From Neolentinus lepideus HHB14362 ss-1 (taxonomy: Eukaryota; Basidiomycota; Agaricomycetes; Gloeophyllales; Gloeophyllaceae): 41,792 nt of DNA. The first letter of the stretch is position 1, and each line of letters opens with the position of its first letter. The notes under the pieces are model-generated. The model ran no database searches. It saw nothing but the letters and a program-made list of their open reading frames with translations, and was not told where the DNA came from. The stretch lies in contig KV425687.1 of assembly GCA_001632425.1 (NCBI GenBank), positions 1-41,792 on the forward strand, written 5' to 3'. Shown here one piece after another: positions 3,569-41,792 of the stretch. The translations under genes were made by a program, and so were the position numbers.

Positions 3569-4195
3569 CGCCACAGTAGTTAGCCTTATTTAGATACTTT
3601 CCCGTGTGAGTCGGGAATATCCGAGTAGCCACTTGTGACTGAAAGAACATTCAAGGACAATGAATGATGAACAGAGTAGCTCGTAGAATATATTAGAAAC
3701 CTGTAGAATTAAGTAGAGATCATGAGAAAGACCTGTAAGTTACTCTCGGGCTCCTGATCGAGGTAACTTGCAAATGTATATAAGAATGACACTGAAGCGT
3801 CTGGAAATCAATCACTCTTGCACACCAATATACTCGGGAACATCCCCCCTCTAAGGATTTAAGTCCTCTTCCTATAGCGGTTTAGCTAGGACCTGTAGCT
3901 TGATATTTATCATAGCGAAAGCTGATTATATCAAGCGCGATTTAGTTTATTATAGGGTATCTACGGTTCTGAACTTATTCAAGTTGCGGCTGGATTTATC
4001 ACTTAGGAAATTCCCCTCTCACAATATTATTAATTAAATACTCCTACTCGACTTTACAAATTCTAGCTCAGTCGTAACAATGGCGGTCCGAGAATACAGG
4101 GTGTCTAAAGTACTAAGTAACCCAAATGTCCGAAATCTACTAAGTCCGAAGCTCCTTTGTCTATCAAATTGTGCCATATGCAACAAATGAGAATA
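3569..4195. other. No gene seen; AT-richer spacer
   Basis: I see no coding frame with homology or codon bias. The only structure is a 60-bp block at 4091-4150 that recurs at 4709-4769. Confidence 0.5.
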
Positions 4196-8045: not shown

Positions 8046-8336
8046 TGTAGAAGCTATAGACAAATGTTCTCAGCCGTGTACGATAACGACTATATATAGA
8101 GCTGTGTACCTATAGACAAATGTTCTATGGTACATGGATCAATGCTATGCTCGGACATGAGATATGTGGATGGGGGGCGCTCACCTCAGCCGTGTACGAT
8201 AACGACTGAGGAAAATGGAGCGCGGGGAGAGGCGGCGACTATATACGTCGACGCCAATACTTCTGTGACGATGTCGCTCTCGCATTGCACAAACGCGGAT
8301 CACGCGTCATAGCGTGTCAGTGCTCGTGCGCCAACA
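8046..8336 (-). repeat. copia 3' LTR (in element sense)
   Basis: This 291-bp sequence is identical to 13475-13765. It contains an internal repeat: CTATAGACAAATGTTCT and CAGCCGTGTACGATAACGAC each occur twice within the LTR. Confidence 0.95.
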
Positions 8337-8347
8337 CTCCTCCTTGC
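8337..8347 (-). other. copia polypurine tract
   Basis: Read on the minus strand, GCAAGGAGGAG sits immediately before the 3' LTR. This is the expected place and composition for the plus-strand primer. Confidence 0.7.
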
Positions 8348-8475
8348 GAGGGCTAGGCATCCCGGAACATCAACATCCCAAGATCTCCTCCTCGCATGGA
8401 ATCCGACTCCTCCTGAATCCGACTCCTCCTAAAACCCAACTCCTCCCCAGATCCAATTGTTCTTCATCCCTAAGA

Positions 8476-13293: not shown

Positions 13294-13462
13294 GCGAAGA
13301 GAACGAGCGGGGGGGAAAAGCGAGAGCGAGCGACGTAGAAGAGAGCGAGAGCGAGGAGACGCGAGCTGTGCGCACGTAGGTGGGCGCTTCGGATCGTACT
13401 TCGGGTCCGAGAGTCAAAGATGTCAAGTTTCTGCGACTCGGCTTGCGAGAGCACGAGGTCAG

Positions 13463-13474
13463 AGGCTCATAACC
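13463..13474 (-). other. copia primer-binding site complementary to the initiator tRNA-Met anticodon arm
   Basis: Immediately after the 5' LTR, the minus strand reads GGTTATGAGCC. This is the complement of GGCTCATAACC, the anticodon stem-loop (anticodon CAT) of fungal initiator tRNA-Met. Priming from a tRNA half rather than its 3' end is known for Drosophila copia, and this site has the same logic. Confidence 0.75.
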
Positions 13475-13765
13475 TGTAGAAGCTATAGACAAATGTTCTC
13501 AGCCGTGTACGATAACGACTATATATAGAGCTGTGTACCTATAGACAAATGTTCTATGGTACATGGATCAATGCTATGCTCGGACATGAGATATGTGGAT
13601 GGGGGGCGCTCACCTCAGCCGTGTACGATAACGACTGAGGAAAATGGAGCGCGGGGAGAGGCGGCGACTATATACGTCGACGCCAATACTTCTGTGACGA
13701 TGTCGCTCTCGCATTGCACAAACGCGGATCACGCGTCATAGCGTGTCAGTGCTCGTGCGCCAACA
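13475..13765 (-). repeat. copia 5' LTR (in element sense)
   Basis: It is identical to 8046-8336. It should carry the element promoter; the minus strand has a TATATATAGTCG run near 13521-13535. Confidence 0.95.
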
Positions 13766-18995: not shown

Positions 18996-21227
18996 ATGGC
19001 TTCCACGTACAAGTACTTCGCGCATTCGCCTGCGCTGCTGGATAGTCTGTCCAGTTATGCACAAAATCTATTGCTGCGCTCGACGAAGAACCCGCTCCAG
19101 TCGTTCGGTACGAAAACCCACATATGCAGCCTGTACTGGAACGTTGTTAACCCCGCCCGCCCAGCCAAGTCGGCCATTCTGTCGACACTAGCTAGAATCA
19201 CGCGCGGACAGCTGCGGCTGGAGTCACTGGGCGTGTTGCATGAATTCGGCAGTGGCTATACTCTGCCAGCGCATATAGGTGGGCCTTCAGCGGGCTTGGC
19301 TGCGAAGATTACAGTTGTGGACGAGGGGTTCTGGGTTCGGTTACTCTTGCATGCGGATTTTGGGTTTGCGGGTGAGATCCTAGCGGCTTATTTCTCCGGA
19401 TACTGAAAGGTATAGAACGAATCATAGATGCCTACATGTTGCACGAGATTGAGGTGGATAACCTCGGCAACGTGTTCAAGGTCAGAGTCGTGAGTTTATA
19501 TGTCCTGTATCTCTAAGCCTGTCCTGTCCTGCAGATATTCCTGTTGAACCGCCGCGCTCTCACCGAAATGTCGACGTTCGCAACGCCACTTCTCCAAGGT
19601 CTCAGCTACATGTGAGCTGCGCTCATCTTCTTGCCGGACTCTATTAATGCTAATACGACAGATCGAACTCTCGCCTAGCCAACGCATTGTCGAGGAGTCG
19701 CCAGAACATATCGTGCGTAGTGCTTAAAGTGACGTCAGGCGTTCACGCAAAGCCTCTCTAGGATGCACTACGATCTGTCTAATGAAGTGTTTCAAGCATT
19801 CCTGTCTTGGGATATGACGTGCGCGGATCCAACCCTTCGTATCTCTATCTCATCTTTACTTATGTTGGTATAGGTACTCCTGTGCTATATTTCTACAAGA
19901 CACGAACGGACCGACAGGCGATCTCCTGGAAACTAGACCTATCGCGCCTCCTCGGAAAACTCTGGAAGAACCTGCTGTTGCTCCTCCGGATGACCTCGAG
20001 AAAGGCCAGATGGAGAAGCTGCATTTGATTGCCAGAAGAGCTAGGATTAAGAAAGGCTCTCGGGTCCTCGAAGTTGGGTGAGCATATTTTTTGCGCACTC
20101 GTTGCGCGGCTGACGGTTGCGAAGATGCGGCTGGGGAAGCTTCTCGATCCTAGTGAGTCTTCAAAATCACAGCAAGTCATCACCGTGCCAGCTATCCCCG
20201 CAAAGGCGGCTACCGAATACGGAGCTATCGTCGATGCGATCACCCTCTCCGCTGAGCAGAAATCCATAGTCCAAGCAAAGATCGACAAATTGGGTCTGTC
20301 GCATTGCATTACCGTACAGCTCATGGACTACCGTGAGCTCCCGAAACACTTCCACCATGCGTTTGACGCTGTAGTGTCTATTGGCGTGATGGAGCACGGT
20401 GAGCTGTGATCATTCTTTTTTGAAGGAAGACGCTGTTTATTGTAAGCGGGACAGTCGGATCCGAGTTCATGTGCAGATGGTTTGAGGTGATGGAATGGGC
20501 TATGAAAGAGGAAAACGCGGTGAAAGTGTGCACGATAACTACTGTTCCGGATTCCAGATGGGAGTCGTACTCTAGGTGCGTCGTTTTTATGTCGGCATTT
20601 GTAAAGCATTTCCAGACCGGTCCATGACAGAGATGTCGACTTCATACAAAAGTACATCTTCCCGTAAGTGCCACGTTTAAATATCGCGAATTTCGGCGTA
20701 GAACTAAACTAGTCGATGACAGCGGAGGACAGCTCCCCTCCGTCAAGACACTCGTGAACGCCGCTGTCGGTGCCAAGCTGAATGTCCACTCAATCGAAGA
20801 CATCGGACCTCGTCGGTTCCTATTATTAATATCCCACTCTTCCATTTCTGATTTCTTCGATGTACCGTAGACTACGCCCGGACTCTGCGCGAATGGAACT
20901 CCCGCTTCCAAAGCAACTTCGACAGCCATATCCGGCCTGCCCTGCGACTTCGATACCCGCACCTGACTGAGGGTGACATCAACGTATTCAAGCGCAAGTG
21001 GACGTGTATGTTCATTCCTGTTTGGCTGTCAATAGGGAGATAGGCGATTGCTTATGCTGCGATCTTTGACCAGATTACTTTATGTACTGCGAAGCAGGTT
21101 TCGCGATGCGTTTCATCTCTGACCATGTGATAGTGTTTACTCGAGAGGTGAGCGATCTACACTTGCTCCATTTTACCCAATTGACTGACGACTCTATGAT
21201 CCGTAGGGTAACCTCCTACTCGATTAA
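18996..21227 (+). CDS. Cyclopropane-fatty-acyl-phospholipid synthase-like SAM methyltransferase
   Basis: Fourteen exons give about 503 residues with no broken motif. Introns: 19372-19427, 19481 (or 19490)-19534, 19612-19661, 19713-19761, 19819-19873, 20078-20124, 20153-20205, 20399-20454, 20576-20630, 20664-20722, 20812-20870, 21006-21073 and 21148-21206. The stop is TAA at 21225. Family landmarks in order are the N-terminal lipid-binding part, HYDLSNEVFQAFLSWDMTYS, the SAM motif VLEVGCGWGSFSI, ITLSAEQK, YRELP.HFHHAFDAVVSIGV, GPHYARTLREWN and the C-terminal MYCEAGFAMRFISDH. Bacterial relatives transfer a methylene group from SAM to double bonds of membrane lipid chains; the substrate here is unknown. 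Start: the ATG at 18996 follows a TATA box, and an earlier in-frame ATG at 18921 would precede it. The second intron has two equally phased donors. Confidence 0.9.
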
Positions 21228-24905: not shown

Positions 24906-25642
24906 GGACATTGAAGCGGGGATGTAACCTACACTAGATTGGATATAAAGACCGATTATCCGGCATTCAGGACCACGGCGTCAAAGGACTATCAGCAGAC
25001 ACCCAAGTGCCCACTGATACCGCCAGATGAGGCTCAAGTTGGAGTCATCATGAAACATGGTATTGGAGTCACATAAATGCGACTTGTACCTGGATTGACC
25101 AAGACTTTTATTCTCTCTCTTCCTTCTTCGCGGTGGTGCCTGTGCCATGCCCACAGATGTCTATCTTCTCGCCAAAAGACCCTTGCCACGGCCCGCAGGT
25201 TCACTTTAGTAACTGGTCATCACCGGTATACATCACCAAGTACGCTAACGCTGTACGTCTCGTGGAACTTCCAATCCAACGTTTTCCAAGGAGAACTGAG
25301 GAGATAAATAGATTGATCAAGTACGAAGAAGCGAGTATACAGTATAAATACAGCAGAGGGTTTAGTATCAGACCAAATAATACTAGAGAATGAATCACAG
25401 ATCCTGCCACGAGAGACTTGGATACAAAGAACGACAGCACGTACGATCAGGGACAATAAATTCAAAAAGAAAGGAAGATTTATACCATGCCTGAAGGAAA
25501 GGACAGAAAATACAGAAGGACCGCGATCCACTATTCCACACCACATTGTACGCTGAATTAGTATGAGGGTGGTCAGCTGTCATCGTAGTAGAACTCCAAT
25601 TAAACCACTCACAAATTTGAGAATAAGAAGACAGCAATACAA
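24906..25642. other. No gene supported; downstream of the NRPS
   Basis: A plus-strand frame at 25133-25393 has some protein-like sequence (PCPQMSIFSPKDPCHGPQ) but no recognisable family or splice partner. The right end should hold the 3' untranslated region of the NRPS gene. Confidence 0.4.
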
Positions 25643-26376
25643 TCATGCTCTAGCAACCAAGATCACCAAGCCCGCGAGCAGCCCCGCGTTCATCAACACC
25701 ACCGCCGAAAGCACCGCCGTCAAGCCCATCACGAGCGATCCCAGTCCTATGAGTAGCAGCGCGTCCGAGTTGCCGGTGGCGATCCCAAATCGCGTTGCGG
25801 GCTGTTGAGGATGAACTAAGACAGGCGAGTCACCCTCCTTAGCAGGACTCAGCGCGCGGTTGCCTTCCAGGACGGTGTTGACGAGCGCAAGCACGTTCAC
25901 GACGATACGCTCGAGCGCCGCCGGTTCGCGCCCGTCATCATACTGTCTCTCTCTCGAGACCGCGGTCCGCTCCGACGACGGGCGGCGCCGGCGCTCTCGA
26001 GTCTCAGTCTCCATCTTCGACTCCTCGTGGCGGACATGATCAGTAACGGCGTCGAACCTGGCTGACTCGTGCGGGTCGGTCTCGAATACAGTGGAACTCG
26101 TCGACACGGCGTGCGAGAGAGCCGGTCGCTCGAGGGTGTCGAATATGGAGAGGTGTGGGGTAGTAGCTTCCTTCTGGATCGGAGTCGGGAGGCTGATGGC
26201 AATATCCGGGATGGGAAGGTGCAAGTGAGACAATTCCGGCGACTCGAGAAGACCTCCAGGTAGCGAAACGCGCACTTGCTCGAGTTCTGCATCCGCTGTT
26301 ACTTGAGGTGCAGGAGCCTCTTCCACCGCAGATGTGGAGGCAGCGAGCGACGGCGACATGAATAGGTCCGCAGGAG
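25643..26376 (-). other. NRPS C-terminal tail with hydrophobic segment (residues about 4047-4289)
   Basis: After E2 comes a Pro/Ser/Glu-rich linker, a charged stretch (RERRRRPSSER), a possible amphipathic helix (LERIVVNVLALVNTVLEGN) and then residues 4252-4287. That last stretch has no charged side chain (ALLLIGLGSLVMGLTAVLSA and on) and ends ARA. It is long enough for a two-helix hairpin or one tail anchor. It is in the same uninterrupted exon as E2, so it is not a gene-model artefact. Confidence 0.85.
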
Positions 26377-29300
26377 GATTCAACTGCGCCGCTGTGAATA
26401 TCTCGCGCAGACTCGCCTTACACCCCTCCATAACATCTTTGATCACCTCCGCATCATACATCTCGCTGTAAAACTCCGCATCCATCTGCAATGTCCCTTC
26501 AGGCGTAACCTGCCCAGTAATCGAAAGTGGCTTGTGCAGGATCTCGACGTCCGCGTAGTTTGCCGGGTTCCGGATGCTCTCCCCGTCCTCTTTGAAGAAC
26601 GCGTCCTTGGCGAACACCTGCCACCGCCCGAAGTAGTTGAAGCACACGTCCGCGTCAGCGCTGCGAAGATCGCGGTCGTGCTCGCCTGCCTCGGTGAGCC
26701 AGCGCACAGCCTGATAGTCGAAGCCCTCCTGGGCGAATGAGGAGAGCGACGTCTGGACGTACTCAACCAGCGAGGCGACATCCGTGGGTGTGCCGGAGAG
26801 ATCGAACGTGTGCGGGCTGCCGTTGCTCGTGCTAAACCACCCGATACTGCGAGAGACATCCAGGTCTTCGGCGTATGGTACGCGACCATGGCTCACGATG
26901 GCGAGTGGAACAGCGATGCTGCCGAATCGAGTCCGAATGGACATGAGGAGCGCAGCGAGGAGCAAGTCTTGGTCGCCTGTGTTGTAGAATTGGTTGCCTC
27001 TGTTCAAGAGATCTTCGATGCCAGAACCGATGGAGATTGAGGCCATGCCTATAGCCATCTCGCGGCCTCTTTCAACGACAGCGAGTGATGGTGCACCAGG
27101 GCGTAGTAGTCTCCTGACGAAGGCGTCATTGTCCACGAGAAGGCTCCTCGAGTACTCGATGAAAGATGCGGGATTCAGTGCTGAAGCATATTGCTGCAGA
27201 CGATGACTCCATTCATGGAAGGAAGTCGTCTTCGGTCCGAGTTTCTCACCACGGAGTAGAAGCTCCAAGTCCTCCATAAGAATACGCCAACTGACCAAGT
27301 CAATACAGATGTGGTGCACAGCTATCCAGATTCGTTGCTGAGACGCGTCCTCGAAGAGTACAGCCTGATAGAGTGGGCCATGGTATACGTCGATCTCTTG
27401 CTGAAGCTTTCTCACATGCGAGTCTAGTTCGTCGAACGACGAGACTGTGATATGCTTGACTGCAACAGTGTGCTCTGTCTCAGGTACGATTACCTGAGAC
27501 CAAGAACCGCCCTGCTTCCGGTACGTGGCCCGCAGAATATCGTGATTCCTGACTATCTCTCCAATAGCTTGCGAGAAGGAACTGTAAGTGATGCGCTGGT
27601 GTGGTGTCACACAGAAACTCTGATTCCACCAGCCAACATTCCTCCAGTTCAGAGAGAAATACCATCTCATGACGGGCGACAAGGGTGTATCACCAGACGT
27701 TGGTATCTTCTCGGGCTTCGAGGGAACAAGCGAAGTTTGTGATTCAGCTGGGCTGCCTGTACTGGCACCGGCGAGGGCACTCAGAGAGGTCTTACGATCG
27801 GCGACCTGACTAGGCTTGATGGTGAAGCCACGCTTCTTAGCGGCAGCAACGACGCGCAAAGCACTAATGCTGGATGGAAAAAGATATTGAGAAGACATTC
27901 TGTTGCAGACGAATGTAACTGCCTTACCTGTCGCCTCCGAGCTCTTTAAAGGTGGTATCGCTCATTATAGTACGAGCATCTACTTTGAGGACAGACGCCC
28001 AGATCTCCGCGTACATTCTTTGAACATCATCCAACGAATGCGTGGCTTTCTTGCTCTCCTTTGGCGCCTGGTCGAGATTAAGTAGAGCTTCCTTATCGAC
28101 TTTGCCGTTGCGATTCATTGGAAGAACCCGCACAGCTGTTACTTTTGAGGGCACCATGTACTCGGGTACATATCTGGCAGCCGTATCTTGGGCGCCCAAG
28201 ACGTCCACACTTTCGGGGGTGACGAAGGCGACGAGGTTACCGTTCTTAACCAGGGCGACTGCTTGCTGGACATCCTTGTGGTGACGCAGAGCATTCGCAA
28301 CCTCCAACAGCTCGATTCGGAAGCCCTTCACTTTCACTTGATCGTCCATTCGGCCGAAGTGTTCGACACCTCCCCACTCCGTCCATCTTCCGACGTCGCC
28401 AGACCTAAACATTGTCAGGCCAGGAGTGAAAGGATCTGGCAGGAATTTCTCAGAAGTGAGCTGCGGCATTTTTAGATATCCTCGGCCGACGCAGGTGCCA
28501 CTGATGAACACCTCTCCCTTGCACCCGAAGGGAACACGCTTCATCGTTGCCGGATCCAGGATATAGCATCTGACGTTGGGTAGTGGTTTACCCATAGTGA
28601 TGCGTCGGTCAACACGCATCTGATCCAAGAAGGATATGATTGTCGTTTCCGAAGGTGCGCACGAGTTGTAGAATCGGACGTGAGGCGCCCACGTTTGGAT
28701 CAATTGTGCGGGGCATGGTTCTCCTGAAACAGCGATACTCTTGATGTTGGGCAGGTCTTCTCTGGAGAGCTGAGAGAGGATGGTAGGGGTGATAAAAACA
28801 GTGTCCACCGTTCGGAGGACATCAAGCGTGGGCCCCTCTGCATAGCTGTTAAAGACCGGTCGCAGAGAAGAAGGAAAACTTGCTTACTACGCATGACTAC
28901 TGTTGCTCCATTGAATAGACACGACTGAACTTCCCAGGTACCCATATCGAACGAGACAGACAGTATGCTGGCTCCCCGGCTGCCTGGACCAGTGCCGAAG
29001 GCACGGGGACTCTGCATCACAACATTCACTAGACTTCGATGCACACATATCACACCCTTAGGTTTACCTGTCGCAGAGGTCAGATCTGCCAACAATAATT
29101 ACAGTCATATAAAACGCACCAGTCGTTCCGCTCGTGAAAATCACGTACGCTGGATCATCACGATCTACCAAAACTGAACGGGGCTTTAACTGGGGCAATA
29201 GTGAGGCCGATGTCCGTGAGATTGAGATGACACGCGTGGTGGCTCCTAGTACTGCATGCTCCGTCGAAGGATGACACAACGCAACGGTCGGGTTGACCGA

Positions 29301-32300
29301 GACGAGAATGTCTTCGATCCTGGCTGTTGGGTAATCTTTATCAATTGGCACATAAGCAGCACCAGCTTTGAGTATGGCCATGATGGCGATCACCATGTCA
29401 ATTGACCGAGTGGTAATCAAGGGGACCATGTCACCTCGCTTCACGCCTTCTTGCTGAAGCCTATGAGCGACAGCATCAGCGAGACGATTCAGTTCTCCGT
29501 AGGTAATGGTCTCTTCTCCGTGCTCAGCGGCAACAGCTCGCGGCTGTCGGCGAGCGTGTGCTTCGAAGCCGTGATGTACGCATTGATAGGTAAGCTCCAT
29601 GGGCTCACCAATTTCCATTTCTTGTAAGCGCGCAAGATCAAATTGGCTCACAGAGTTCAAGTCCTTCAAGGGAGTGGCGACGGAGAAGCTAGGTCCGGAG
29701 ATTACCTCCAGTAAATCCACGAACTTCTCTGCGACACCACGGGCGTGGTGAACATCAAATTTGTGCGAGTTGAAGGTCATGAGAACCTCGATGGCATCTT
29801 CGACGCACATCAAGTTGACATTGATGTCGAACTCGGTGTTCTCGATGGCTTGTATGACTTGCACGTCGAATGGTAGACTGTCGTTCGATTCCGTCGCAGG
29901 GAAATTCTAAAAACTCCTGTCAATCTCAGACACTCAAGACGTGTGTATCTTATCTGCTTACCTGGAAGGTTAAGGTTGTGGTGAAGAACGACGTGAGATC
30001 GGAGATCTCATTCCATTTCATGATATCCCTCAGTGTCGCATGATTATGCGCCAGGGATTCCACATGCTGGTTATGGAGATCCCGAAGCAGGGACAAGAGC
30101 GTTCCATGCGAATCGATTCGGGCAGCCACAGGTACTGTGTTGACCAACGTCCCAAAAATTTGGTCTGCATCATCGATCACAGTATCGCGTCCAGAGACTA
30201 TTGCACCAAAGATAACCGTCTGCTCTTTTGTATAGTGGTATACCGTTAACGCCCATATCGCTCTCAAAAGGGTAGACAGTGTTGTCTCGACGCTCGAGCA
30301 TAAGCGGGAGAGAGGTCCCATCACATTGGAAGTTCTCTTGCTGATCGAGACATCTGCAAGGCTGTGGTGAGAATCCGAGGGCAAGGGCTCTGGGAACGGA
30401 AACGGAAACGGGGAGCATTTGTGGTCACGGAACAGGTCCTGTCGCCAGTAAACACGAGCTGCAGCTGACTCGATGGCATTTAATTGCATCGCATAGTCCT
30501 TGAAAGACGGCTTCCGCGCAGTCAGTCGCTTACCACTGCATCCCTTTAAAAAGTCTTCAAACTCCAGGGCATGAGACCACCCATCACTGATAGAGTGGTG
30601 CTGTGTCCAAACGCAGCGCCATCGATTCGTTGAACCTATACGAGCAATGGTCATCCGCGCAAAGTACGGCGAGCTGGTATCGAAACCAAGAGAGAGATCT
30701 TCATGCAGGAAACTCGTCTGGATCTCATCCATTCGCTCTTCAGGCCACTGCAGAACGGTCACATTAGACGACGCCGCCGAGGATCGCAACACGACTTGAT
30801 ACAATCCTTCAGAAGTATTGACAAAGGTACTTCGGAAATTGACGTTGACACTCACCAGAGCCTTCCAGGCCCTGATGAGATCCTGCTCACTGATTCCTCC
30901 GGTAAACTCGTAGATGGTCTGCGAGACGTACTGATCGGAAGCCTTCATAAGGCTTAGGAAGAACGCAGACTGTGCAGCAGTGGCTTTCCACAAGTCTTCA
31001 ATATCTGAGGGCATCAGACCGGCAGCGGAGAGTTCGGCGTCGATTTCGTCAAACGTCCCCTTGTCGACTGCACCAGTGGCAACGACAGGCAAGTGAGGTG
31101 GCAAAGAAGAGCTGGTCAGAATGATTTCCATACGGGACGTCCATTCTTGTCCGAATTGCGCCAAGATAGTTTCGTCGTACAACCCTGGATCAAAGTAAAA
31201 CTCGATGACCATGCCGCCATGCTCTTCCAGGTATACCGAACAGACAATCCCGAAATCGACATTGTCGACGTCAAGATCCACATCGAGTGGCAAGTCGATA
31301 GGTTCAAGGAGCTCCGACTTGACGCTCGCTGCCTGTCCAAAATAATTGAATTCTATGTGCGGGAGAGAGCGTCGCTTGATCAAGGACGCATCCGTTCGAG
31401 ATGTGCAATACTTGAGCATTTCGTACGAGGTGCCCTGATCTGGTACCGAACGAAGCTGGTCCCGCACAGCCCGAAGTGCATCTTCGGTACACCGCATTGA
31501 ACGAAGGTCCAAGACGACAGGATACGTGGAAGTGAACCACCCGACTGTCCTAGATATGTCCATGTCCTCGGCGAACACACTCCGACCATGCGACTCTACG
31601 CAGATACCGAAAGGACCCAAACTAATGAGTTCATGGAAAGCGAAGGTCAATGCCGTCAACACAACATCCTGCGTATTGCAATCGTAGGCCACATTTAATG
31701 CGTTCAGCCCTTCACATAGCTGCATGGGCAGAACGGATTTGATGGTCTTCCGCCGTCCAGTGGATAAACTGTTTCGACGAATAAGATCAGATATGTGCAA
31801 AACTATTGCGGCCACCCTACACACCCTTGGGACTTGGTGAATACAGAACCATCTGCATCGTTCGACAAGAATCTGGTCCACTCTTGCGGATTGTAAGTAT
31901 CCGCAAGTCTCGACAGGTGTCTTGTCCATGCGCCGAAAGGAGTGGTCTTCGGCTCAAGCTTCATCATGAGAAGAGCCCTTTCAATATCTTCAAGCAAAAC
32001 GTTGAATGATACGATATCCACAATCAGGTGATGGACTGCGACAAAGAGGTACTGGCGTTCAATGTCCTGGAGACGAAGATCGGTTCAGCTGTTGGCGATT
32101 CCGCGTTGTAGACTCACTTCGATCAATGCAATGAGGAACAGCGGTCCCTCCAGAATGTTGAGAGTCTTACTCAACCGCAGCACTTCATCGCGCACATCCC
32201 CTTGGACTTGGATATGCTGGACTGAAGCCGTATTAGTCTCGGTCCCGGCAGGAGCAACAACTTGGTTCCATTCATTGCCGTTTCGTTGGAACCTAGCCCT

Positions 32301-35300
32301 TAACATATCATGTTGCATCAACAAACGTGGTATTGCTTGCTGAAGGTCGGCAAACTCCAGTCGGCGCTTGAGTCGACAAAGACGGCTTTGATTATAGTGG
32401 TGCAACTGTTTCGCGTTCGTCAAGAAGCGAGCCTGGGCAGGTGATAGAGGGACGTCTCCAGTAATTTCCCCTTGGAAGTGCAAGGACTTAATAGTCGGCT
32501 TCTGAGCGTCGCCCACTATCTCAGCCAGTGCTGCAACCGTTGGCGACTTAAATATTTGAGAAACCGTGAAATTAAGTCCCTCCGCTCGAGCCTTCGACAT
32601 AAGTTTGATGGCGCTGATGCTGTCGCCGCCGAGAGCAAGGAATGATGTCTGCCGGCCAACCGTGTCGACAGGAATACCAAGGGTAGCAGCAATTGCACGC
32701 TGGACGGCCAGCTCGGTGGGAGATGCAGGAGATTCTGTCGATTTTGGCGCCTCAATACGGCTCAGACGGCTGCGATCTATCTTCCCGATGCTTGTCATCG
32801 GGAACTCGGGGAGACAAATAATCTCAGACGGAATCTCATATGATGGCAAAGACGTCATGCAAGCACGGCGCACAGCCTCAACGTCGACAGTCTTCGACGA
32901 GACAAATCCGACCAGAATTTGTCCATTATTCGTCCCTCGGATCATAGCAAGAGCATCGTCCACGCCCGTGACACCCCTCATTACTGAGGCAACCTCTTCG
33001 AGCTCGATTCGGTATCCCTTCAGTTTCACCTGTGCTCCGACGTAAGCGCATTATACCATAGCCAACAACACGGCACTTACTTGTGTATCATCTCTCCCGT
33101 GGAATTGCAACTCGCCATGCGGCAGCCAACGCACCAAGTCGCCAGCTCGGTACATCATTTCTCTTGGATTACCGGCCGGCATAAATGGATCCTGAACGAA
33201 CTTCGCGTTCGTCAGATCAGATCTTCCATAATAACCTCCGGCAGCTACACCCACTCCACCAATAAACAGCTCTCCTGTGACACCTATAGGGACAGGTCGC
33301 CGAGTTTCGCCATTCAGGACATACATACTCATGTTTGGGAACGGTCGGCCAAGCGTGATGGGCATATCACCCGAGTACGGAGTGGAATTGCACGACGTAC
33401 TGATGCAGCATTCGGTCGGACCATAATCAGAGTACAGTGCCACTTTCGTGCTCCACTTGTCAACTAGAGACTTGGGAAGAGCCTCTCCACAAGTGAAAAT
33501 ACATTTCAGATTCGGATGATCGCATGGATCCAGCTGCTGCAAACCACTAGGTGTGAGGCTGAGCACGTCAAGCTTCTTGATCGTAGAAAACGCATCTTCT
33601 TCACGTATCACTACTGTTGCCCCAGTGAACAGTCCTCCAAAAACCTCCTGGAGAGTCCCGTCAAAGCTAATGGCTAGCATCTGACCAATACGAGTGTCTG
33701 GACGTATGTGTTTCATCGCCGGGTGGAACCAGATGTTGTTGACGGCGCCAGAGTGATGGCATGCGATCGGCTTTGGCTTGCCTGTGGTACCAGAGGAAAA
33801 GATGATGTAAGACAAGTCTTCCCCGTGAGCAATATCTTTAGGCAAATCTGATTTTTTTGAAGGCGTAGATCCAATAAACCCATACGGCAGGCCCTCGAGA
33901 AGATGCGCCCTCTCGTGATGGATGGCTTCCGTCGTCAGTACATACGTGATGTACGCTGCAGACATCATATAGCGGATACGTTCCTCTGGAAATGTGACAT
34001 CCAAGGGAACGAACGCGGCTCCAGCCTTGACGACCGCCAACATGCCTACCACGAACTCGATACTTCGGTCCACCAGGAGTCCAACAAACTTTCCCGGCAC
34101 TATCCCCAAAGTCTTCTGCAACTGACAAGCTAAGCGATTGGTCCAGTTGTCCAGTTCCCGGTACGTGATCTTCATACCGTAATGTTCTAGCGCAACATGG
34201 TCCGGATATTTCGACGCCGCAGAAATGAAACCGCCATGCATGGTCTGGAATGGTGTTGTAGATGCACCGCCATACCCGAACTCTCGGAATCGTCGCATTT
34301 GATCCACGGAAAGCGGAATGTCGTCGACCACCATACCGTCATTTTCAGGGGAGACCATAACCCTGAGCAAGTGCTCCAGTTCATCGACGATGTCCGTGGT
34401 TGCAACTTGGTCAATCATGTTCGGATTATGAACGAACTCAAGTTGTAATCCTTCCTCGTGCGGAACGAATGTCAAGTCCGCCCCGTATTCAGTAACGTCT
34501 CCCAACCAACACCGGTCCTCCAGAATGAAGGCACCAGTCTTCGACGAGTCCTTCGCCTCCGCGGTGCCGAACGTTACTAGTGTATGAAAGAGAGACATGT
34601 GACCATCCTGACGAGCCCATTTCTGGATATTGACAAGACCCGCATGACAATGATCCAAGCTTCCCATGTACGAAGATTGCACGTTGCTCAGAAGGTCACG
34701 AATAGTCATGCCCCGCTCAAACCGAATCCTAACGGGGACGGTTGCGAGAAGGAGGCCGACCATCTTGTCGACATCAGGCACTGGGACACTCCGCCCAGCT
34801 TGCACGTTCCCAAAAATAACGTCCTCACGATTGAGATAAAGCTTGAGTATCACTGCCCAGGAAGCGTTCACCAGGGTAGCTTGCGTGATACCAAAGCGGA
34901 CACACGCCGCTCGCATGGACTCGGGAGGGATGCGTATGAGCCGATTGACCGTGTTCGACTTTCCGGACGTTGGAGATGTAGGGAGAGACAAACTGTCCGA
35001 GGGCATAACACCATCCAGGTACTTCGTCCAGTAGACTTCCGCGTCCGCCTCAGAGGCGCTAAGGATATAATCGGTGAAGGTTCTATACGAGGGTGCTGGG
35101 CTAGGTGGTATCGTATAGCAAAATGCTCGGAGATCCGATTTAACGATGCCCATGGACCAGCCATCATAAATAGAATGGTGAAGGGTCATAATTATAAAGT
35201 TTGCAGAACCATTCGATCCCTTGATGATCGTAAGACGAGCCATGGGTTGACCGAGCTCGAAACCACGCTGGAGATCCTGATGGAGAAGTTGACGACATTC

Positions 35301-38300
35301 GGTTTCGTCTTTCTGACCCAATACCAAAGGAGCTCGTTGGTCAGCATCTTCCACCACCACCTTGTATACACGTCGTCAGCATGAGCGAACAACGATAGAA
35401 GACATATAAAATCTACTTACTTGGAAGACCCCGTCTTGCGTCGTGACAAACCTGGTTCGAAGACTAGAGTGGTGATTCAAAAGGCGCTTCCAGGATATGC
35501 TGAGCCTGCTGACATCAATAGGTCGATCGGACCGTACTTTCCACATACGTCCAGTAGCGTATTTTGATCTGTCCTGCATAAGCGCGAGAATTAAGCCGGT
35601 CTGCAGCTGATTTGCTGGCAAAATATCCTGGATTGTATCCTCTCTGATACCAACATGTCGAAGTTCTGCCATCACAGCCGCCACCGTACTGAAGGACACC
35701 GATGACGGCATTTGAGGCTTTGCCTTCGGAATGACAGGCACGACTGCTGCGGCTACTGCCGACACACCAAGATAGCTTTCCAGCTTCGAGATGGTTTGTA
35801 ACTTGAATATTTGCGAGGCGGAAAATTTGTGACCGGCGGCCGTGAGGGCGGCTGCCACCCTGACGGCTGTGATACTGTCGCCGTTTGGCAACTGGAAAAA
35901 TGAGGTATCCATTCCGATCATGGACACGTCGATTCCAAGGACCTCAGCCCAGACCTTGGCAACCAGTTTCGACACTGTTGAGGAAGGAGCTCTCATGTCA
36001 GTAGGTGACGCTTCGACAAGTAATTTCTCGAGCTCCTTTCTATCCACCTTTCCATTACGCGTCATTGGCAGGTCTGACTGGCTGACGGCCTTGAACACGT
36101 CCGGGACCATGTAATGGGGTAGCACCTCGGCGCAGGAGTCCCGTACTCCGTCGATATCCACACTTTTCGGAGCAATGAACGCAATGATTCTCTCATCCTT
36201 GACGAAAACCGCAACGAACTTGACTTCCGGGTGCTGTGAGATGACATACGAAACTTCGTCCAGGTTCAAACGACGACCCTTGACTTTGATGTCGTCGTGA
36301 AGATCCTTGCGACCGATATAGTAAATGCTTCCGTCCTCAGTCCATCTACACATGTCACCGGAGGCATACAATCTCCCGCCTTCACAATACGGATCAGCGA
36401 TAAACTTCTTCGCCGTCAAATCCGGCTTGTTCAGGTACCCAATTCCAACGCCATACCCACCAATCCAGAGTTCACCTTTCATGCCGATAGGCACCCGTTG
36501 CATATTATCGTCAAGAATACGACAAATGACGTTGGGGATGGGCCTGCCGACTGTGATATCCTGGTCCTGTCGCAGCGCAGCGGAACTAGTATGAACGGTA
36601 CACTCGCTGGGCCCATATATGTTTATGATAGTGGGCACAACGTCAAGCCAAGCCTTGAGCAACGCGGCAGGTACAGGTTCACCAGCAAGCGTGATACGCT
36701 TGAGTTTCGGGAACGACCGGGGCTTCACTCGCTGAAGACCAGTGGGAGTGAACTGGAGATAGTCCAGAGTCTCAATGGTGCTCTCCCAATCAACATTGTC
36801 ATCACGCAAGACAAGAGTGGCGCCAAACATGAGGGTGGAGAATATTTCACCGACACAGCAATCAAATGCAAGACCCATAAAGTTCCCGACACGGTCTCCA
36901 GGAGAGGACAACCAGCTGCCCGAGGAATCATGGAGCACGTTCACCAGCGGCTGGTGGCGACTTATGCTGACTTTGGGTGTACCCGTCGTCCCAGACGACC
37001 CAATCCCAAACGCGGGGTCCGAAGCGTCGACGACAGGCAGCGGCGCCTCCCGGAGCACTTCACGAACGTCGCGCTCGGTGACAATGAAAACTTCCTTCAG
37101 ATCATCCTTGAACACTTCCGGCGGGTCATGCAACGCTTGCCTAGACGTCACTACCATGACATCCGCGCGACAGTCCCGTATGAGGCTCCGAATCCTAGCA
37201 CTGGGAGTCTCCTCGTCAATCGGCAGGTATGCGGCACCCGCACGGAGGACAGCCATGATCCCAACCACCATCGCTATCTCCCTGTGCACAAGCACAGGGA
37301 TGAGACAACCTTTCCCGACACCAAGGGCTATCAGCTGATGAGCCAGGCCTTCGCTTCGTCTCTCTAATTCGCCATAGGTGAGATGACGTGCACCCTCTTC
37401 GACAGCTATGGCGTCCGGATCTCGCTGAGCCTGCGCAAGGAACCCTTCGATGACACTAGTGTACGGCACCGGCCTTTTCTCTCCCTCTTCGAATGGCAGG
37501 ACACGTAACACCTCCTGAGCTATCTGCACCTGCACAAAATCCTGGAGAGTAGTCCGCTCTGCAAAGTCCGTCTCGGCATCGTCGAGGAAACTCTGCAAAA
37601 CAGCACGGAGATGTCGTTTTGCAGTCAAGGCCGTCTCGTGCGGCACAACGTTCAAGTCGTGCGACATCAAAGCATACAGAACACCATTTTTGTTGTTGAA
37701 TTCGGCAGCCAATTCGAACTCAACTGATGAAATGTGAATCAAGAACTCGGTGTCATAAGCGCCCATCTGAGCAGTCTGAACAACGAAGTTGAGAGTGATA
37801 AAGGTCCGGAACAGCTTGGCCTGCTTGACATTGAGCCACTGCGATAGTTCCCCTAAAGAAACCTGCCGATGAGAGATAATGTCAAAGTAGCCCTCCTGCA
37901 AAACTTCGGCGAGTTCCTTGATAGACTGAGTAGGCTTCACTTCGACTCGGAAAGGGAGGGTAGAGATAGTGGGGCCCATGATCCTATCAAAGATCATCAG
38001 AACCACGATCGCCTAAAACCGAACTGACGACGTACCGGTCCACATCAGCGAGAGGAGTGTCTCTACCACTAAATACCTCGCCAAAAATGTGGCCATATTC
38101 GGAAGTACTCAAGACGAGGGCCAGCGCCCAAACTGTGCGAACCAAACTCGGCGCAGTAACCCCCAGAGCGCGCGCGGCCCTCTGGAACTCCTCGACATTC
38201 CCGACCGGAAACTCGGACAGACATCGCATGCGTCTCCCAGACGCAGCCGCATCCGAAGCCTTGTCGAACGGTGCGTCCGCCAAATATTCGGTCCAGAACT

Positions 38301-39095
38301 TCTTCGCCTCTTCGCGGTCCTGGACTGACGAAATGTGTGCTTCATACTGAGCAAACGAAGGCCGACTGATGGGGAGACCGGATAACGCAGAGATGAAATC
38401 TTCGATGAGTATTTGGAGCGAAGCGGCGTCGAACAATGCGTGGTGCATGGTGACGACGAAACGCGAACTATTCTGCTTCGGAAGAGGGGCAAGACCAGCC
38501 GTCACCACAGTCTGCTTCGTCCCCTTGTGCAAACAATCAGCATACAGTTTATGTATCGGCTAGAGGTAACGTACCTCCGCGAGTATATTAATCACTTTGG
38601 CCTCATTTTTTATATACCCTTCTTGGATGACCTCAACGTCGTCATCGTCCCAGCAGAGCCGCTGCAGCTCCGTCCGACTCGGATGCACCTCCCCCAACTC
38701 GACACGGAAAATACCATGCCCGTTGGCCACAAACTGGCTGCGCAAGATGCCATTGCCCGCGACCACCGCACTCCACGCGGCCTGCGCTCGTTCAGGTTCG
38801 ACGACAGCGTTGATGGCCCACACCGTCGACCCCACGTACGCGCGCGCGTGCAGAGCAGTGACGCTGAGCATGTCCGCCTGCATAGGCGTAGCGGCCGACA
38901 CGTACGCTATGCTCTCCCCGGGCTCGAGAAAGACCGCGTGAGCGACGGCTTTTGCAACTTCGACTGGAAGACGCGGCGGATCGATGCGAGAGGAGCCACC
39001 GGACTCTGTCGGACAGGGTCTGCATGTTCTGTCAATATCACCACATATCGCCCATGTATGTCAAAGAAAACCCACTTTAATGATAGGGTAGACAT
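25643..39095 (-). CDS. Trimodular nonribosomal peptide synthetase, C-A-T-C-A-T-E-C-A-T-E with hydrophobic C-terminus
   Basis: Twelve exons give 12,870 nt (4,289 residues plus TGA). Introns of 47-60 nt: 39029-39075 (tentative), 38524-38574, 37984-38035, 35361-35420, 33030-33080, 32067-32117, 31769-31824, 29907-29961, 29068-29119, 28838-28887 and 27870-27927. Every intron is GT..AG and every junction restores a conserved motif, for example GRDDTQ/VKLKG, SGTTG/KPKG and LGGD/SISAL. The whole coding length is divisible by three, so I treat it as one gene. The enzyme should load three amino acids, join them and epimerise at least the second. There is no thioesterase, reductase or terminal C domain. 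The N-terminal C domain implies an acylated or otherwise capped first residue, or a partner donating to it. The ATG at 39095 is inferred through the tentative first intron. It is divergent from a diaminobutyrate aminotransferase gene. Confidence 0.93.
26377..31017 (-). other. NRPS module 3: C3-A3-T3-E2 (residues about 2571-4046)
   Basis: C3 has HHSISDGWS from 2710 and, following E1, should be a D-accepting C domain. A3 runs from about 3033 to 3495 with FTSGTTGKPKG, FRSGD and NGKVDKEAL. Its A5 motif is unusual, NSCAPSETT in place of N.YGPTE. The pocket residues by eye are D-M-W-F-A-S-S-I-I-K. T3 has Ser 3548 (LGGDSISAL, split by an intron). E2 keeps HHICIDLVSW (3733 on) and FNYFG, but the Glu motif reads AIVSHGR, with Val 3873 at the catalytic Glu, and WFSTSNGSP replaces WFTS.YP. 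Confidence 0.88.
31095..35693 (-). other. NRPS module 2: C2-A2-T2-E1 (residues about 1085-2545)
   Basis: C2 has HHSIYDGWS at 1236-1244. A2 runs from about 1549 to 2024 with SSGTTGKPK, SDYGPTECC, YRAGD and SIGKIDR. Its pocket residues by eye are D-G-Q-S-F-C-D-I-S-K. The Asp at position 322 could face a cationic side chain such as diaminobutyrate. T2 is canonical (LGGDSISA, Ser 2072). E1 looks complete: HHLIVDIVSF from 2251, catalytic Glu 2378 in CVESHGR, DISRTVGWFTSTYP and EFNYFG. The second residue is therefore predicted to be D. Confidence 0.88.
35765..39095 (-). other. NRPS module 1: C1-A1-T1 (residues about 1-1061)
   Basis: C1 starts at SAATPMQADML (residues 51-61) and has its active site HHALFDA at 185-191, with Ala in place of the usual Gly. 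A1 covers about 500-975 with SSGTTGTPK, NIYGPSECT, YASGD and NGKVDRKEL. By alignment to GrsA I read the pocket residues as D-C-G-Q-T-A-I-V-H-K. A1 has two extra residues in the A8 loop (GRKDLHDDIKVKG). T1 has an extra residue before its Ser (FFQLPNGDSI, Ser 1024). Substrate unknown. Confidence 0.88.
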
Positions 39096-39218
39096 TATGC
39101 GGTAAAGTAACTTGTAGCTCAAAAAGACGGGCAGTTATTATTAGTGGCGACGACAAACTGTTCGGAGCGGTTGGCTCAAGGGTCGAAATTGTTTGACAGA
39201 GAGCGGGGGAGCAGGAGG

Positions 39219-39225
39219 TCTTATA
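39219..39225 (-). promoter_or_regulatory. Possible TATA box for the NRPS gene
   Basis: TATAAGA on the minus strand lies about 125 bp upstream of the proposed ATG at 39095. The match is imperfect and the start codon itself is tentative. Confidence 0.3.
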
Positions 39226-39785
39226 CAGACCTCCCGGTCCCGTCCTCATACAGTGACGCGACCATTCGAGTACTTTGTGTGCTCACCTGTGCCTCCACGG
39301 TCCCTCGGCACTTAGGCACCATCATTTTCATTACTGTGACTGGAAACAGTATGCAGCGCTTCTGTACGCCAGCTCCTGGGTATCTCCGTTTGGCGACGCA
39401 TCGGTCTGTCTGACACGGCACATTAATCACGTTGCATCAGTAAGTGATCCTGGGGACTTCTATCATAGAGGTTAACTGTCCCTCGACGATCCAGTAACCT
39501 TGATGCATCATTTCAAAACAGACCGGCCTGTGAAACTCGCCTGTAGCACGGTGGAGACCGAGGACATTGGGCACCGTTGAAAAGCATAGAAACGTTTATT
39601 TGTACCCTTTCAGAACATTGTAGCTGCGGCAGATCTGAAGCTGAAATTCGTCGCGATCACCTCGAGATTTAAAGAAACTTAGCAGCAAGGCAGTACAGAC
39701 CGAGACGCGTCCCTGTAAATCATGCCAAAGGCGATCAACCGATTGCCGCCGGCATCGCGCTGTTACAGACGTGATACTGTCACAG

Positions 39786-39870
39786 TCATTCGAACAAATG
39801 TGGCTGTCTTGTGTGGCTCCGTGCCCATCAAATTGCGACATATCATTTCAAACAAATGTGAGCTGTCTTG
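39786..39870. repeat. Short direct repeat in the divergent promoter
   Basis: The core AACAAATGTG(A)GCTGTCTTG occurs at 39793-39811 and 39851-39870, each preceded by TCATT. The spacing is about 57 bp. It could be a paired operator for a pathway regulator. Confidence 0.55.
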
Positions 39871-40342
39871 ATTTTTAATATCTCTAATCCGAGACCCGCA
39901 TCCCACAGACGCGCACTTCCACATGCTCCTGGACAGCTTTAGCGAGCAGGGCTGAAACCTTGATCGCGATTTGCGTAAAGTATGCGCAGCGTTGCTGATG
40001 ATCGGACCTCCATCCTCAACAGGTACGTTTGGTGTCTGAGGCACCGGCCTGAATCATCCCTTCACTGAACGGCATGTGCCCTGCCACTGAGATGCATCCA
40101 GATTCCAGACTTGCACATCCCACGAAATGATCCAGTAACCACGGATGTCTGGAATGGAATTGCGACTGACTATTGTACACTTGGTGGAAATCGGCGCTGT
40201 GAGACACGCCCGAGCCCGACTCCCCAACGGTTCAATATCAGATGAACCAGCTATTATGCTACAGTGAATAGTCCAGCGCTGTCACTGTGACTGCGTGAAG
40301 ATTTTAAAGTCGTTCTTGACCTCGTACTGAGCCCCATTCGCC

Positions 40343-41792
40343 ATGTCTCCAGTTGCCGAGTCTACTAGTCGCCTCATCGAATCTGATGCCATTCACAAAG
40401 AAACCAACGGTGGTCACGGTGCTGTCGTGCCGTTCGCTTTATCGTCTGTAGAGTCCAATGCACGCACCTATGCTCGCAGATTACCCGGCACCTTTGCCAA
40501 GGGCGATGGTCTCTGGCTATACGACACAGACGGTACGTCTTCCAGTGCAAGGTCTTTATTGCATACATCTGATAAACAAATACAGGGAACAAGTATCTCG
40601 ATCTTCTTCAGTGCGCAGGTGCACTTCCCCTGGGTCACAATCACCCCATTGTCCGTCAAGCTATCCTCGACTACGTAGACTCCCAGCTCCCACAACAATG
40701 TCTGGACCTCGCAACGACCGCAAAGACAGCCTTCGTCCAAGAGCTGTGGCGCTGGATCCCCGCCCCGCTGTCGTCCACCGGCAAGATCCAGTTCACCTCG
40801 CCCTCGGGCTCCGACGCCGTCGAAGCCGCCATGAAGCTCGTCCGCATCGCGACCGGGAGGTCCACCATCATCGCCTTCGACGGCGGCTACCACGGGCACA
40901 CTTCCGGCTCCCTCGCCGCCATGGGCAACACCGACACAAAATCGCAGCTCAAGACGGGTGCGCTAGCGGATATTGCGTTCTTCCCCTTCCCGCACCCCGA
41001 CAAGTCGCCTTTTGGCTCGAGCGTTACCGACAGCAAGGTCACTGCCGACCTGTGCGCGTCGCTGCTCGAGACCAAGCTTGCTGACCCGGAGAGTGGAATG
41101 ACAAAGCCCGCTGGAATCATTGTCGAGTGCATCCAAGGCGAAGGCGGGGTCGTGCCCGCGCCCAGGGAGTGGCTGAAACGACTGCGGCGCCTCGCCACTG
41201 AGCACGATATCCCGCTCATATTCGACGAAGTCCAAAGCGGGTTTGCCAGGAGCGGCACGCCCTTCGCCTTCGAGTACGCGGGCGTGACACCTGACGTCAT
41301 CGTCATGTCCAAAGCCGGTGAGATCTACATCACGTTATTCTTCCCACGCACTCGGATACTTAGAGCTATAATTAGTCGGGGGCAGCATGCCACTAGCGTG
41401 CATCGTCTACGATCAAAAATTAGACAAGTGGCAACCCGGGAGCCACGCCGGGACGTTCAGAGGCAATCAGCTCGCGCTTGTCACAGGTGCCCGTGTCCTT
41501 GCCCACATGCGTGAAACGAGGATATGGGAGCATGCGGCGCACATGGGTGAATTGTTCAAATCACACCTGTTCGAGCGTGCCTACACGTACGGCATCAAGC
41601 AGCATATTCTTTCCATCCGTGGCAGGGTAAGCCATAGTATTTTTCAATATTAATTTAAGCTGACGAAAATTCATAGGGTCTAATGTTGGGTGTACAACTC
41701 GTGTTGCCCGATTCAATAATTGAAGACGGCACCCTGGCACAGAAAGTCCAGGCCATCATGTTCGATAAACACAAGGTGATTATTGAACGCGG
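40343..41792 (+). CDS. Diaminobutyrate--2-oxoglutarate aminotransferase-like class III aminotransferase (3' end cut off)
   Basis: The exons are 40343-40532, 40586-41317, 41376-41626 and 41677 to the window edge; introns are 53, 58 and 50 nt and all phases agree. The product is PLP-dependent and cytosolic by lack of a signal. Family marks are YLDLLQCAGALPLGHNHP, QCLDLATTAKTAFV, FTSPSGSDAVEAAMKL, FDGGYHGHTSG, ECIQGEGG, FDEVQSGFARSG, the PLP lysine in MSKAVGG and GSHAGTFRGNQLALV. The PSGxDAVEAAxKL and HAGTFRGNQLA patterns fit the EctB/diaminobutyrate branch better than ornithine or GABA aminotransferases. It would convert L-aspartate semialdehyde and glutamate to L-2,4-diaminobutyrate. Its place opposite the NRPS start suggests precursor supply. 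The C-terminus is outside the window. Confidence 0.9.

What the first reader, a model, noticed from the sequence alone, without database searches (positions are those of the whole stretch)
25643..41792. Uncharacterised NRPS plus diaminobutyrate aminotransferase cluster
A 4,289-residue C-A-T-C-A-T-E-C-A-T-E synthetase lies divergent from an enzyme that makes L-2,4-diaminobutyrate. I know of no described basidiomycete pathway with this pair. The aminotransferase predicts a building block, and the synthetase predicts a tripeptide with an N-terminal cap and a D residue. Basidiomycete NRPS genes are mostly ferrichrome-type or short NRPS-like enzymes, so E-containing modules are notable.
Basis: partly seen in the sequence, partly recalled or inferred. 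Interest (0 to 1): 0.88.

Follow-up and report, generated by a model that had tools for sequence, protein, structure and literature searches.

The report
Duplicated mushroom peptide-synthetase and aminotransferase pair
A wood-decay mushroom carries two near-identical copies of a giant peptide-building enzyme, each beside an enzyme of the family that makes an unusual amino acid; the giant enzyme belongs to a small mushroom family that ends in an apparently disabled "mirror-image" domain and what looks like a membrane anchor, so its product and its way of releasing it are unknown.

Summary
Window 25643-39095 (-) encodes an intact NRPS of about 4,286 aa (C-A-T-C-A-T-E-C-A-T-E). 1.25 kb away, divergently, lies a diaminobutyrate-aminotransferase-family gene (40343 onward) that runs off the window end. 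The genome is Neolentinus lepideus HHB14362 ss-1 (Gloeophyllales). (2) Both proteins are also held for Omphalotus olearius (NRPS 49%, aminotransferase Amo1 69-70%); Heliocybe sulcata has the NRPS (79%). (3) The last 'E' domain has Val at the catalytic Glu (VSHGR) in all four genes; 457 of 460 reference E domains have Glu and none Val. It is nonetheless the best-conserved C/E-type domain. (4) All four proteins end in a hydrophobic segment stronger than in 232 other NRPSs. (5) A2 and A3 codes are nearly identical across two fungal orders. Most likely this is a dedicated assembly line for a small peptide with one D residue, possibly containing diaminobutyrate, tethered to a membrane. Product, residue identity and release are inferred, not shown.

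The parts
25643..39095 (-). NRPS gene, 12 exons, about 4,286 aa, C-A-T-C-A-T-E-C-A-T-E plus tail (copy 1)
   Evidence: 98.0% identical to copy 2 (C37:28475-41919)
37494..38925 (-). C1 condensation domain, HHALFD motif intact at 38428-38445
36015..37454 (-). A1 adenylation domain, code DCGQTAIVHK (Omphalotus: DCGFSAIIFK)
35757..35987 (-). T1 carrier domain (LPNGDSI)
34281..35648 (-). C2 condensation domain (HHSIYDG)
32796..34214 (-). A2 adenylation domain, code DGQSFCDISK, identical in Heliocybe and Omphalotus; my candidate site for diaminobutyrate (D322)
   Evidence: substrate is inference
32511..32723 (-). T2 carrier domain (LGGDSI)
31054..32480 (-). E1 epimerization domain, catalytic motifs HHLIVD and ESHGR intact
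29634..31017 (-). C3 condensation domain directly after E1 (HHSISDG)
28086..29585 (-). A3 adenylation domain, code DMWFASSIIK (DMWFASSIVK in Omphalotus)
27758..28028 (-). T3 carrier domain (LGGDSI), split by an intron
26333..27715 (-). E2: E-type domain with Val in place of the catalytic Glu (VSHGR at 26882-26896); HHICID kept
25790..26332 (-). poorly conserved linker of about 180 aa
25646..25780 (-). C-terminal hydrophobic tail, predicted membrane anchor
39096..40342 (.). shared divergent intergenic region, 99.4% identical between the two copies
40343..41792 (+). diaminobutyrate-aminotransferase-family gene (exons 40343-40532, 40586-41317, 41376-41626, 41677- into C37:369), 468 aa, cut by the window end
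25269..41792 (.). arm of an inverted duplication; other arm C37:42302-25783

Best explanation
The pair is a dedicated peptide assembly line of agaricomycete fungi. The aminotransferase makes L-2,4-diaminobutyrate from aspartate semialdehyde (inferred from family). The NRPS activates three residues; E1 turns the second into the D form and C3 joins it on (inferred from motifs and order). The terminal E2 domain should not epimerise in the usual way, because its Glu is Val, but it is under strong constraint. I think it has become a non-epimerising end domain that holds, hands over or releases the peptide. The hydrophobic tail tethers the synthetase to a membrane. The cluster was duplicated in inverted orientation, and patchy near-identity suggests gene conversion keeps the copies alike. 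Shown by sequence: gene structures, domain order, family assignment of the aminotransferase, lost Glu, conserved tail, the two copies, NRPS orthologues in two other genera and an aminotransferase orthologue in one. Inferred: use of diaminobutyrate by this NRPS, role of E2, membrane location, release.
For: Domain order and intact motifs. 'dat' family above cut-off; the three best solved relatives are diaminobutyrate transaminases. In the own genome the only two 'dat' stretches above 200 bits are in the genes beside the two NRPS copies; the next locus has 86.5 bits (scored exon by exon, so none reaches the whole-protein cut-off). Both proteins also held for Omphalotus. E2: Val in 4 of 4 genes against Glu in 457 of 460 reference E-type domains found without an alignment, the three others being Gln, Ala and Thr, and in 429 of 429 found through an alignment; of those 429, 68 lie near a C-terminus and all keep Glu. 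E2 keeps the consensus in at least one of three sequences at 27 of 32 strongly conserved columns and has the highest identity of the five C/E-type domains, 83.3% and 51.0%. Tail hydropathy 2.44-2.59 against at most 2.06 in 232 others. Copies: dN 0.009, dS 0.050.
Against: No A-domain code looks diagnostic for diaminobutyrate: no acidic residue at 278 or 331, only D322 in A2 (positions recalled). A Heliocybe aminotransferase was not among the 120 listed hits. Linkage in Omphalotus and Heliocybe was not seen. The aminotransferase misses the equivalog cut-offs (EctB 345.1 of 552.2, PRK06931 422.6 of 753, uncorrected model). Three of 460 reference E-type domains also lack Glu, so loss is rare, not unheard of. 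Membrane anchoring rests on hydropathy alone. Adjacency in one genome is one event, even if seen twice after duplication.
Confidence: 0.55

Rival explanations
1. The aminotransferase has its own job (polyamine, osmolyte or amino-acid turnover) or makes an NRPS building block other than diaminobutyrate; the NRPS does not use diaminobutyrate.
For: No A-domain code points clearly to diaminobutyrate. The two fungal aminotransferases form their own clade on a long branch (1.64 changes per column as drawn) apart from 118 other listed proteins, so substrate drift is possible. No Heliocybe copy in the list.
Against: The two 'dat' stretches above 200 bits in the genome are both beside an NRPS copy, across a shared 1.25-kb divergent region 99.4% alike. 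Both proteins are held for Omphalotus, another order.
Confidence: 0.3
2. E2 is a normal docking or epimerising end that passes the chain to a second synthetase in trans, as bacterial initiation NRPSs do (recalled: TycA, GrsA), perhaps using another base.
For: E2 is E-type in sequence, tree and closest solved structures. 68 of 429 reference E-type domains lie within 400 residues of a C-terminus.
Against: All 68 of those keep the Glu; E2 does not in any of four genes. Besides the two copies, the C-domain matches found in this genome are one stretch on C9 and a sub-threshold one on C7 (a lower bound).
Confidence: 0.2
3. E2 is simply decaying after loss of function.
For: Loss of the catalytic residue.
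Against: Highest conservation of the five C/E-type domains between orders (51.0% against 38.0-45.1%); 27 of 32 strongly conserved columns kept; same Val in four genes.
Confidence: 0.07
4. The second copy is an allele or an assembly artefact, not a duplication.
For: Copies are 97.7% alike and the window ends at a contig break.
Against: Contig C37 holds both inner arm ends, C37:1-1462 and 26033-24284, in opposite orientation in one sequence. The rest of the window shows no match to the 80 kb of C37 fetched. 'ss-1' reads like a single-spore strain (my reading). dS is 0.05 and the arms fade to about 80-85% at their ends.
Confidence: 0.08
5. It is a siderophore synthetase.
For: Siderophore synthetases are the best known basidiomycete NRPSs (PMC8358039 and PMC7725599, passages).
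Against: No strong ornithine N-monooxygenase match in the genome: best 24.4 bits, just over the 21.3 cut-off and on a short stretch. Architecture with E domains, three full modules and no repeated T-C tail.
Confidence: 0.07

Closest known systems
Omphalotus olearius putative NRPS Q2VJ19 and putative aminotransferase Amo1 Q2VIS5
   Same: Orthologous NRPS (49%), same E1/E2 pattern, same A2 code and A3 code but for one residue, hydrophobic tail; aminotransferase 69-70% identical
   Different: Extra A-T in module 1 and another A1 code; C2 and C3 lack the first His of HHxxxD; product and gene linkage not found in what I could search
Heliocybe sulcata NRPS (P0123)
   Same: 79% identical, same codes, VSHGR and tail
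   Different: Duplicated T domain after A3; no aminotransferase among the listed hits
Pseudomonad pyoverdine pair PvdH and PvdL (roles recalled)
   Same: A diaminobutyrate aminotransferase supplying an NRPS; the PvdL E domain is the best solved match to E2
   Different: Bacterial; Glu present in the PvdL E domain as aligned; architecture differs (recalled)
Fungal E plus C_T-DCL synthetases such as HC-toxin synthetase (PMC10212144, passages)
   Same: E1 followed directly by a C domain
   Different: Here the chain ends with a Glu-less E domain, with no terminal C_T or TE found
Ferrichrome-type and type VI (basidioferrin) synthetases of basidiomycetes (PMC8358039, passages; details recalled)
   Same: Basidiomycete NRPS
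   Different: Three full modules with E domains; no strong ornithine monooxygenase match in the genome

Membership tests
Multimodular NRPS | Repeated C-A-T modules with intact HHxxxD, carrier Ser and adenylation motifs | tested here: met
Diaminobutyrate aminotransferase (TIGR00709 'dat') | Whole-protein score above curated cut-off | tested here: met
   423.2 against 401.6 bits, (model lacking seven residues)
Diaminobutyrate aminotransferase equivalogs (EctB TIGR02407, PRK06931) | Score above equivalog cut-off | tested here: not met
   345.1 of 552.2 and 422.6 of 753
Diaminobutyrate aminotransferase | Forms 2,4-diaminobutyrate | not testable with these tools
   needs enzyme assay
NRPS epimerization domain, E1 | HHxxxD and catalytic Glu of the E[GS]HGR motif | tested here: met
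   HHLIVD and ESHGR
NRPS epimerization domain, E2 | Catalytic Glu | tested here: not met
   Val in 4 of 4 genes; Glu in 457 of 460 references
NRPS epimerization domain, E2 | Belongs to the E clade and keeps the other conserved residues | tested here: met
   tree; 27 of 32 columns
TIGR01720 (post-condensation region of E domains) | Score above cut-off 74.2 | tested here: not met
   56.6 (exon piece with the end of E1) and 42.7 (E2)
Tail-anchored membrane protein | Hydrophobic segment at the very C-terminus | tested here: met
   KD19 2.44-2.59, highest window of each protein; one span or a hairpin is not decided
Tail-anchored membrane protein | Membrane location | not testable with these tools
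   needs localisation
Hydroxamate siderophore pathway | Ornithine N-monooxygenase in the genome | tested here: inconclusive
   best PF13434 stretch 24.4 bits, cut-off 21.3
TE- or C_T-terminated NRPS | Terminal thioesterase, reductase or C_T domain | tested here: not met
   the last exon gives only the E2 match in Pfam; E2 lies in the E clade; only linker and tail follow

The most novel reading that the evidence does not exclude
A membrane-tethered NRPS family of agaricomycetes in which an epimerization domain lost its catalytic Glu, gained a C-domain-like residue at that site and became the chain-terminating (releasing or cyclising) domain, working with a dedicated diaminobutyrate aminotransferase to make a D-residue-containing diaminobutyrate peptide.
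Probability: 0.25. Interest if true: 0.8.

Novelty: new variant of a known kind. Interest (0 to 1): 0.55.

Why it matters
Multimodular basidiomycete NRPSs are little studied: a review passage I read calls NRPs largely underrepresented in basidiomycete studies and names ferrichromes and involutin among the examples (PMC7725599, passages). A three-module line with its own precursor enzyme, both proteins held for two fungal orders, is a concrete handle on a new mushroom peptide. An E domain without its Glu but under strong constraint makes a testable case of an NRPS domain changing its job, and bears on how fungal NRPSs without a thioesterase release their product. The C-terminal segment would make this a membrane-tethered assembly line; my one search on that listed two papers, both off the subject by title and abstract start.

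Tried and rejected
Gene finder at low intron cost gave nonsense chains; raised cost gave the models used. Models overlapping the NRPS on the other strand (for example 35920-37367 +) were taken as shadows and not pursued. The first splice model of aminotransferase intron 2 lost seven residues; sequence reading and P0002 fixed it, but the NCBIfam and PDB scores are for the uncorrected model. Rfam and tRNA scans of the window were empty. The viral, metagenome and bacterial contig collections were not searched: wrong kingdom for orthologues. Structure prediction was not run: the whole NRPS is over the length limit, and for the E2 piece alone I expected little beyond what the sequence tree shows. 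An ABC transporter as part of the cluster was considered: it stands beside copy 2 only; near copy 1 there is a 35-residue stretch with a stop, so it is left out of the core. Horizontal transfer of the aminotransferase from bacteria: its listed non-fungal relatives are bacterial where an organism is named, but the tree has no outgroup, so this stays open. The published signature table for diaminobutyrate A domains (PMC12283262, passages only) was not held in text, so I could not compare codes with it. A first count through an alignment gave Glu in 429 of 429 reference E domains but missed some domains, among them one with Gln seen; an alignment-free recount gave 457 of 460, which I use.
Full report
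What is there. The window is contig C135 (41,792 bases) of a 33.8-Mb assembly. The organism is Neolentinus lepideus HHB14362 ss-1: protein P0122, named so by its source, lies on a 272,126-base contig, the length of contig C37 here, and is the second copy of the NRPS. Its order is Gloeophyllales. Comparison with P0122 moves one acceptor by 12 bases, giving introns of 50-60 bp with GT-AG ends and about 4,286 aa. The aminotransferase starts at 40343 on the plus strand. Its intron 41318-41375 was fixed by reading the sequence, giving SKAVGGSMPLA, and matches P0002. The gene leaves the window and ends at C37:369, the two contigs sharing 251 identical end bases.

Domains. Pfam on ten exon pieces of the NRPS finds C, A and T domains; motif search adds T3. 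The order is C1-A1-T1-C2-A2-T2-E1-C3-A3-T3-E2-tail. E1 and E2 match solved E domains of tyrocidine, gramicidin, bacitracin and pyoverdine synthetases. In a quick tree of 105 C/E-type domains they sit in the E clade (support 100). E1 and E2 form one group (support 91), each a clade of three species, beside other fungal E domains (support 94). All C domains of the family keep the second His of HHxxxD; Omphalotus C2 and C3 have lost the first.

The second E domain. At the column of the catalytic Glu, E1 reads ESHGR and E2 reads VSHGR, in both Neolentinus copies, Heliocybe and Omphalotus. As a control I took the 232 other NRPS proteins listed. Found without an alignment, by HxxxDxxS[WF] followed 90-200 residues on by xHG[RK], they hold 460 E-type domains in 207 proteins: 457 have Glu, one each Gln, Ala and Thr, none Val. 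Found through an alignment, with both motifs, 429 of 429 have Glu; by HG[RK] alone, 451 pass: 437 Glu, 8 Leu, 3 Ala, 2 Val, 1 Pro. In a smaller earlier set of 193, the 12 without Glu were mostly ordinary C domains by their His motif. Among 68 of the 429 that lie within 400 residues of a C-terminus all keep Glu. Of 867 C-type domains, 163 have Val at that column and 1 has Glu; Thr is commonest. Of 32 columns conserved at 90% or more in the 429, E2 keeps the consensus in at least one of three sequences at 27. Identity of E2 to its Omphalotus counterpart is 51.0%, against 38.0, 41.3, 41.0 and 45.1% for C1, C2, E1 and C3; to Heliocybe 83.3% against 72.0-79.1%. A domain that lost its catalytic residue yet is better conserved than its neighbours probably has another task. 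That Glu is catalytic in E domains is recalled knowledge. Reading E2 as a release or hand-over domain is inference.

The tail. After E2 comes a poorly conserved linker (56.1% and 29.8% where alignable) and a hydrophobic end (86.0% and 38.7%). The best 19-residue hydropathy mean in the last 60 residues is 2.44, 2.44, 2.59 and 2.55 in the four proteins, and the highest window in each whole protein. In 232 other NRPSs the maximum in the last 60 residues is 2.06. Some of those are marked partial or may be incomplete. One paper search for tail-anchored NRPSs listed two papers, neither on this by title and abstract start.

Specificity. Motif-anchored codes (positions recalled; the final Lys assumed) are A1 DCGQTAIVHK, A2 DGQSFCDISK, A3 DMWFASSIIK. 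Heliocybe is identical in all three. Omphalotus is identical in A2, has one change in A3, differs in A1 and has an extra A-T. A2 and A3 are also the best conserved catalytic domains to Omphalotus, 67.5% and 63.9%. So residues 2 and 3 look fixed and the first varies. None of the codes looks diagnostic for diaminobutyrate; A2 is my guess because of Asp at 322.

The aminotransferase. NCBIfam TIGR00709 'dat' is passed (423.2 against 401.6 bits); of the 25 best families shown it is the only one whose cut-off is reached. The three best solved relatives are diaminobutyrate transaminases. 7,743 of 7,999 scored candidates are significant and the best 120 are listed: the window's own protein, Omphalotus Amo1 at 69%, then 118 proteins at 46-52%, bacterial where an organism is named. 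The two fungal proteins group together on a long branch apart from those 118. In this genome the 'dat' model gives 17 stretches, scored exon by exon. The main stretches of the two cluster genes score 273 bits each; the next locus scores 86.5. A Heliocybe aminotransferase is not among the 120. It may be absent, unannotated, of unusual length, or hidden in the 90%-identity cluster of the window's protein (three members), so this counts neither way firmly.

The duplication. Window 25269-41792 matches C37:42302-25783 in reverse at 97.7%. C37:1-1462 matches C37:26033-24284 in reverse in pieces at 77.7-96.1%, so both inner arm ends lie on one contig. The arms flank about 23 kb with other predicted genes. 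Copy 2 of the NRPS is intact, 98.0% identical, with the same intron positions. Between copies exons are 98.1%, introns 95.5% and the divergent intergenic region 99.4% identical; identity in 500-base steps runs from 92.6 to 100% inside and falls to about 80-85% at the ends. dN is 0.009 and dS 0.050 for the NRPS, 0.009 and 0.086 for the aminotransferase (NG86). Patchiness with old-looking ends suggests gene conversion; this is inference. An ABC transporter (C37:19503-24502; Pfam) stands beside the second aminotransferase; near the first there is a 35-residue remnant-like match with a stop.

Relatives. The whole-length NRPS search scored 1,630 candidates, 431 significant, 120 listed: own copy (98%), Heliocybe (79%), Omphalotus Q2VJ19 (49%), then 32% or less. 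A search with E2 alone scored 1,612 candidates, 787 significant, 120 listed: the same three, then a drop from 672 to 439 bits. So within what these searches reach this is a small family in Gloeophyllales and Agaricales.

Literature. None of what I saw describes a basidiomycete NRPS plus diaminobutyrate aminotransferase pathway, or the Omphalotus proteins Q2VJ19 and Amo1. The two papers holding all three terms mention diaminobutyrate and basidiomycetes in unrelated places; one (PMC2922099) notes diaminobutyrate transaminase genes in peptide-synthesis neighbourhoods, which fits the precursor idea in general. Passages in PMC10212144 say 78% of fungal E domains precede a C_T-DCL domain and that penicillin synthetase has E before TE; an E domain as the last catalytic domain fits neither. 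Passages in PMC7725599 call NRPs largely underrepresented in basidiomycete studies. The library lacks most subscription papers, so an existing description may be missed.

Verdict. Its chemistry forecast is half right: one D residue, since only one of two E domains keeps its Glu; diaminobutyrate plausible, unproven. What is new is the family itself: conserved Glu-less terminal E domain, hydrophobic tail, fixed A2/A3 codes, and, in this genome, the inverted duplication.

Noticed in passing
window 8046-13765: A copia-type LTR retrotransposon: 291-bp direct end repeats 100% identical, one open 1,605-aa gag-pol frame on the minus strand. Looks like a recent insertion.
   Followed up: partly
window 1-4703: Nested direct and inverted repeats of about 220-810 bp at 77-95% identity fill the left end; probably older transposon pieces.
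   Followed up: no
window 18996-21227: A 14-exon predicted gene matching cyclopropane synthetase PF02353 (185 bits), outside the duplicated arm; gene model untested.
   Followed up: partly
C37:19503-24502 (L010, L011): ABC transporter (1,427 aa in the model) beside the second aminotransferase; near the first copy a 35-residue match with a stop at C37:1383-1487.
   Followed up: partly
arms window 25269-41792 and C37:25783-42302: Noncoding divergent region (99.4%) is more alike than exons (98.1%) or introns (95.5%), with patchy identity: possible gene conversion between inverted arms.
   Followed up: partly
whole genome G000: No strong ornithine N-monooxygenase match (best 24.4 bits) although one further NRPS-like gene lies on C9 near 387331-389533.
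   Followed up: no
P0123 residues 3551 and 3655; P0124 residues about 1090-1627: Lineage-specific module changes: duplicated T domain in Heliocybe, extra A-T in Omphalotus module 1.
   Followed up: partly
P0208 residue 2799, P0220 residue 1367, P0284 residue 1943: Three other NRPSs have an E-type domain with Gln, Ala or Thr at the Glu position.
   Followed up: no
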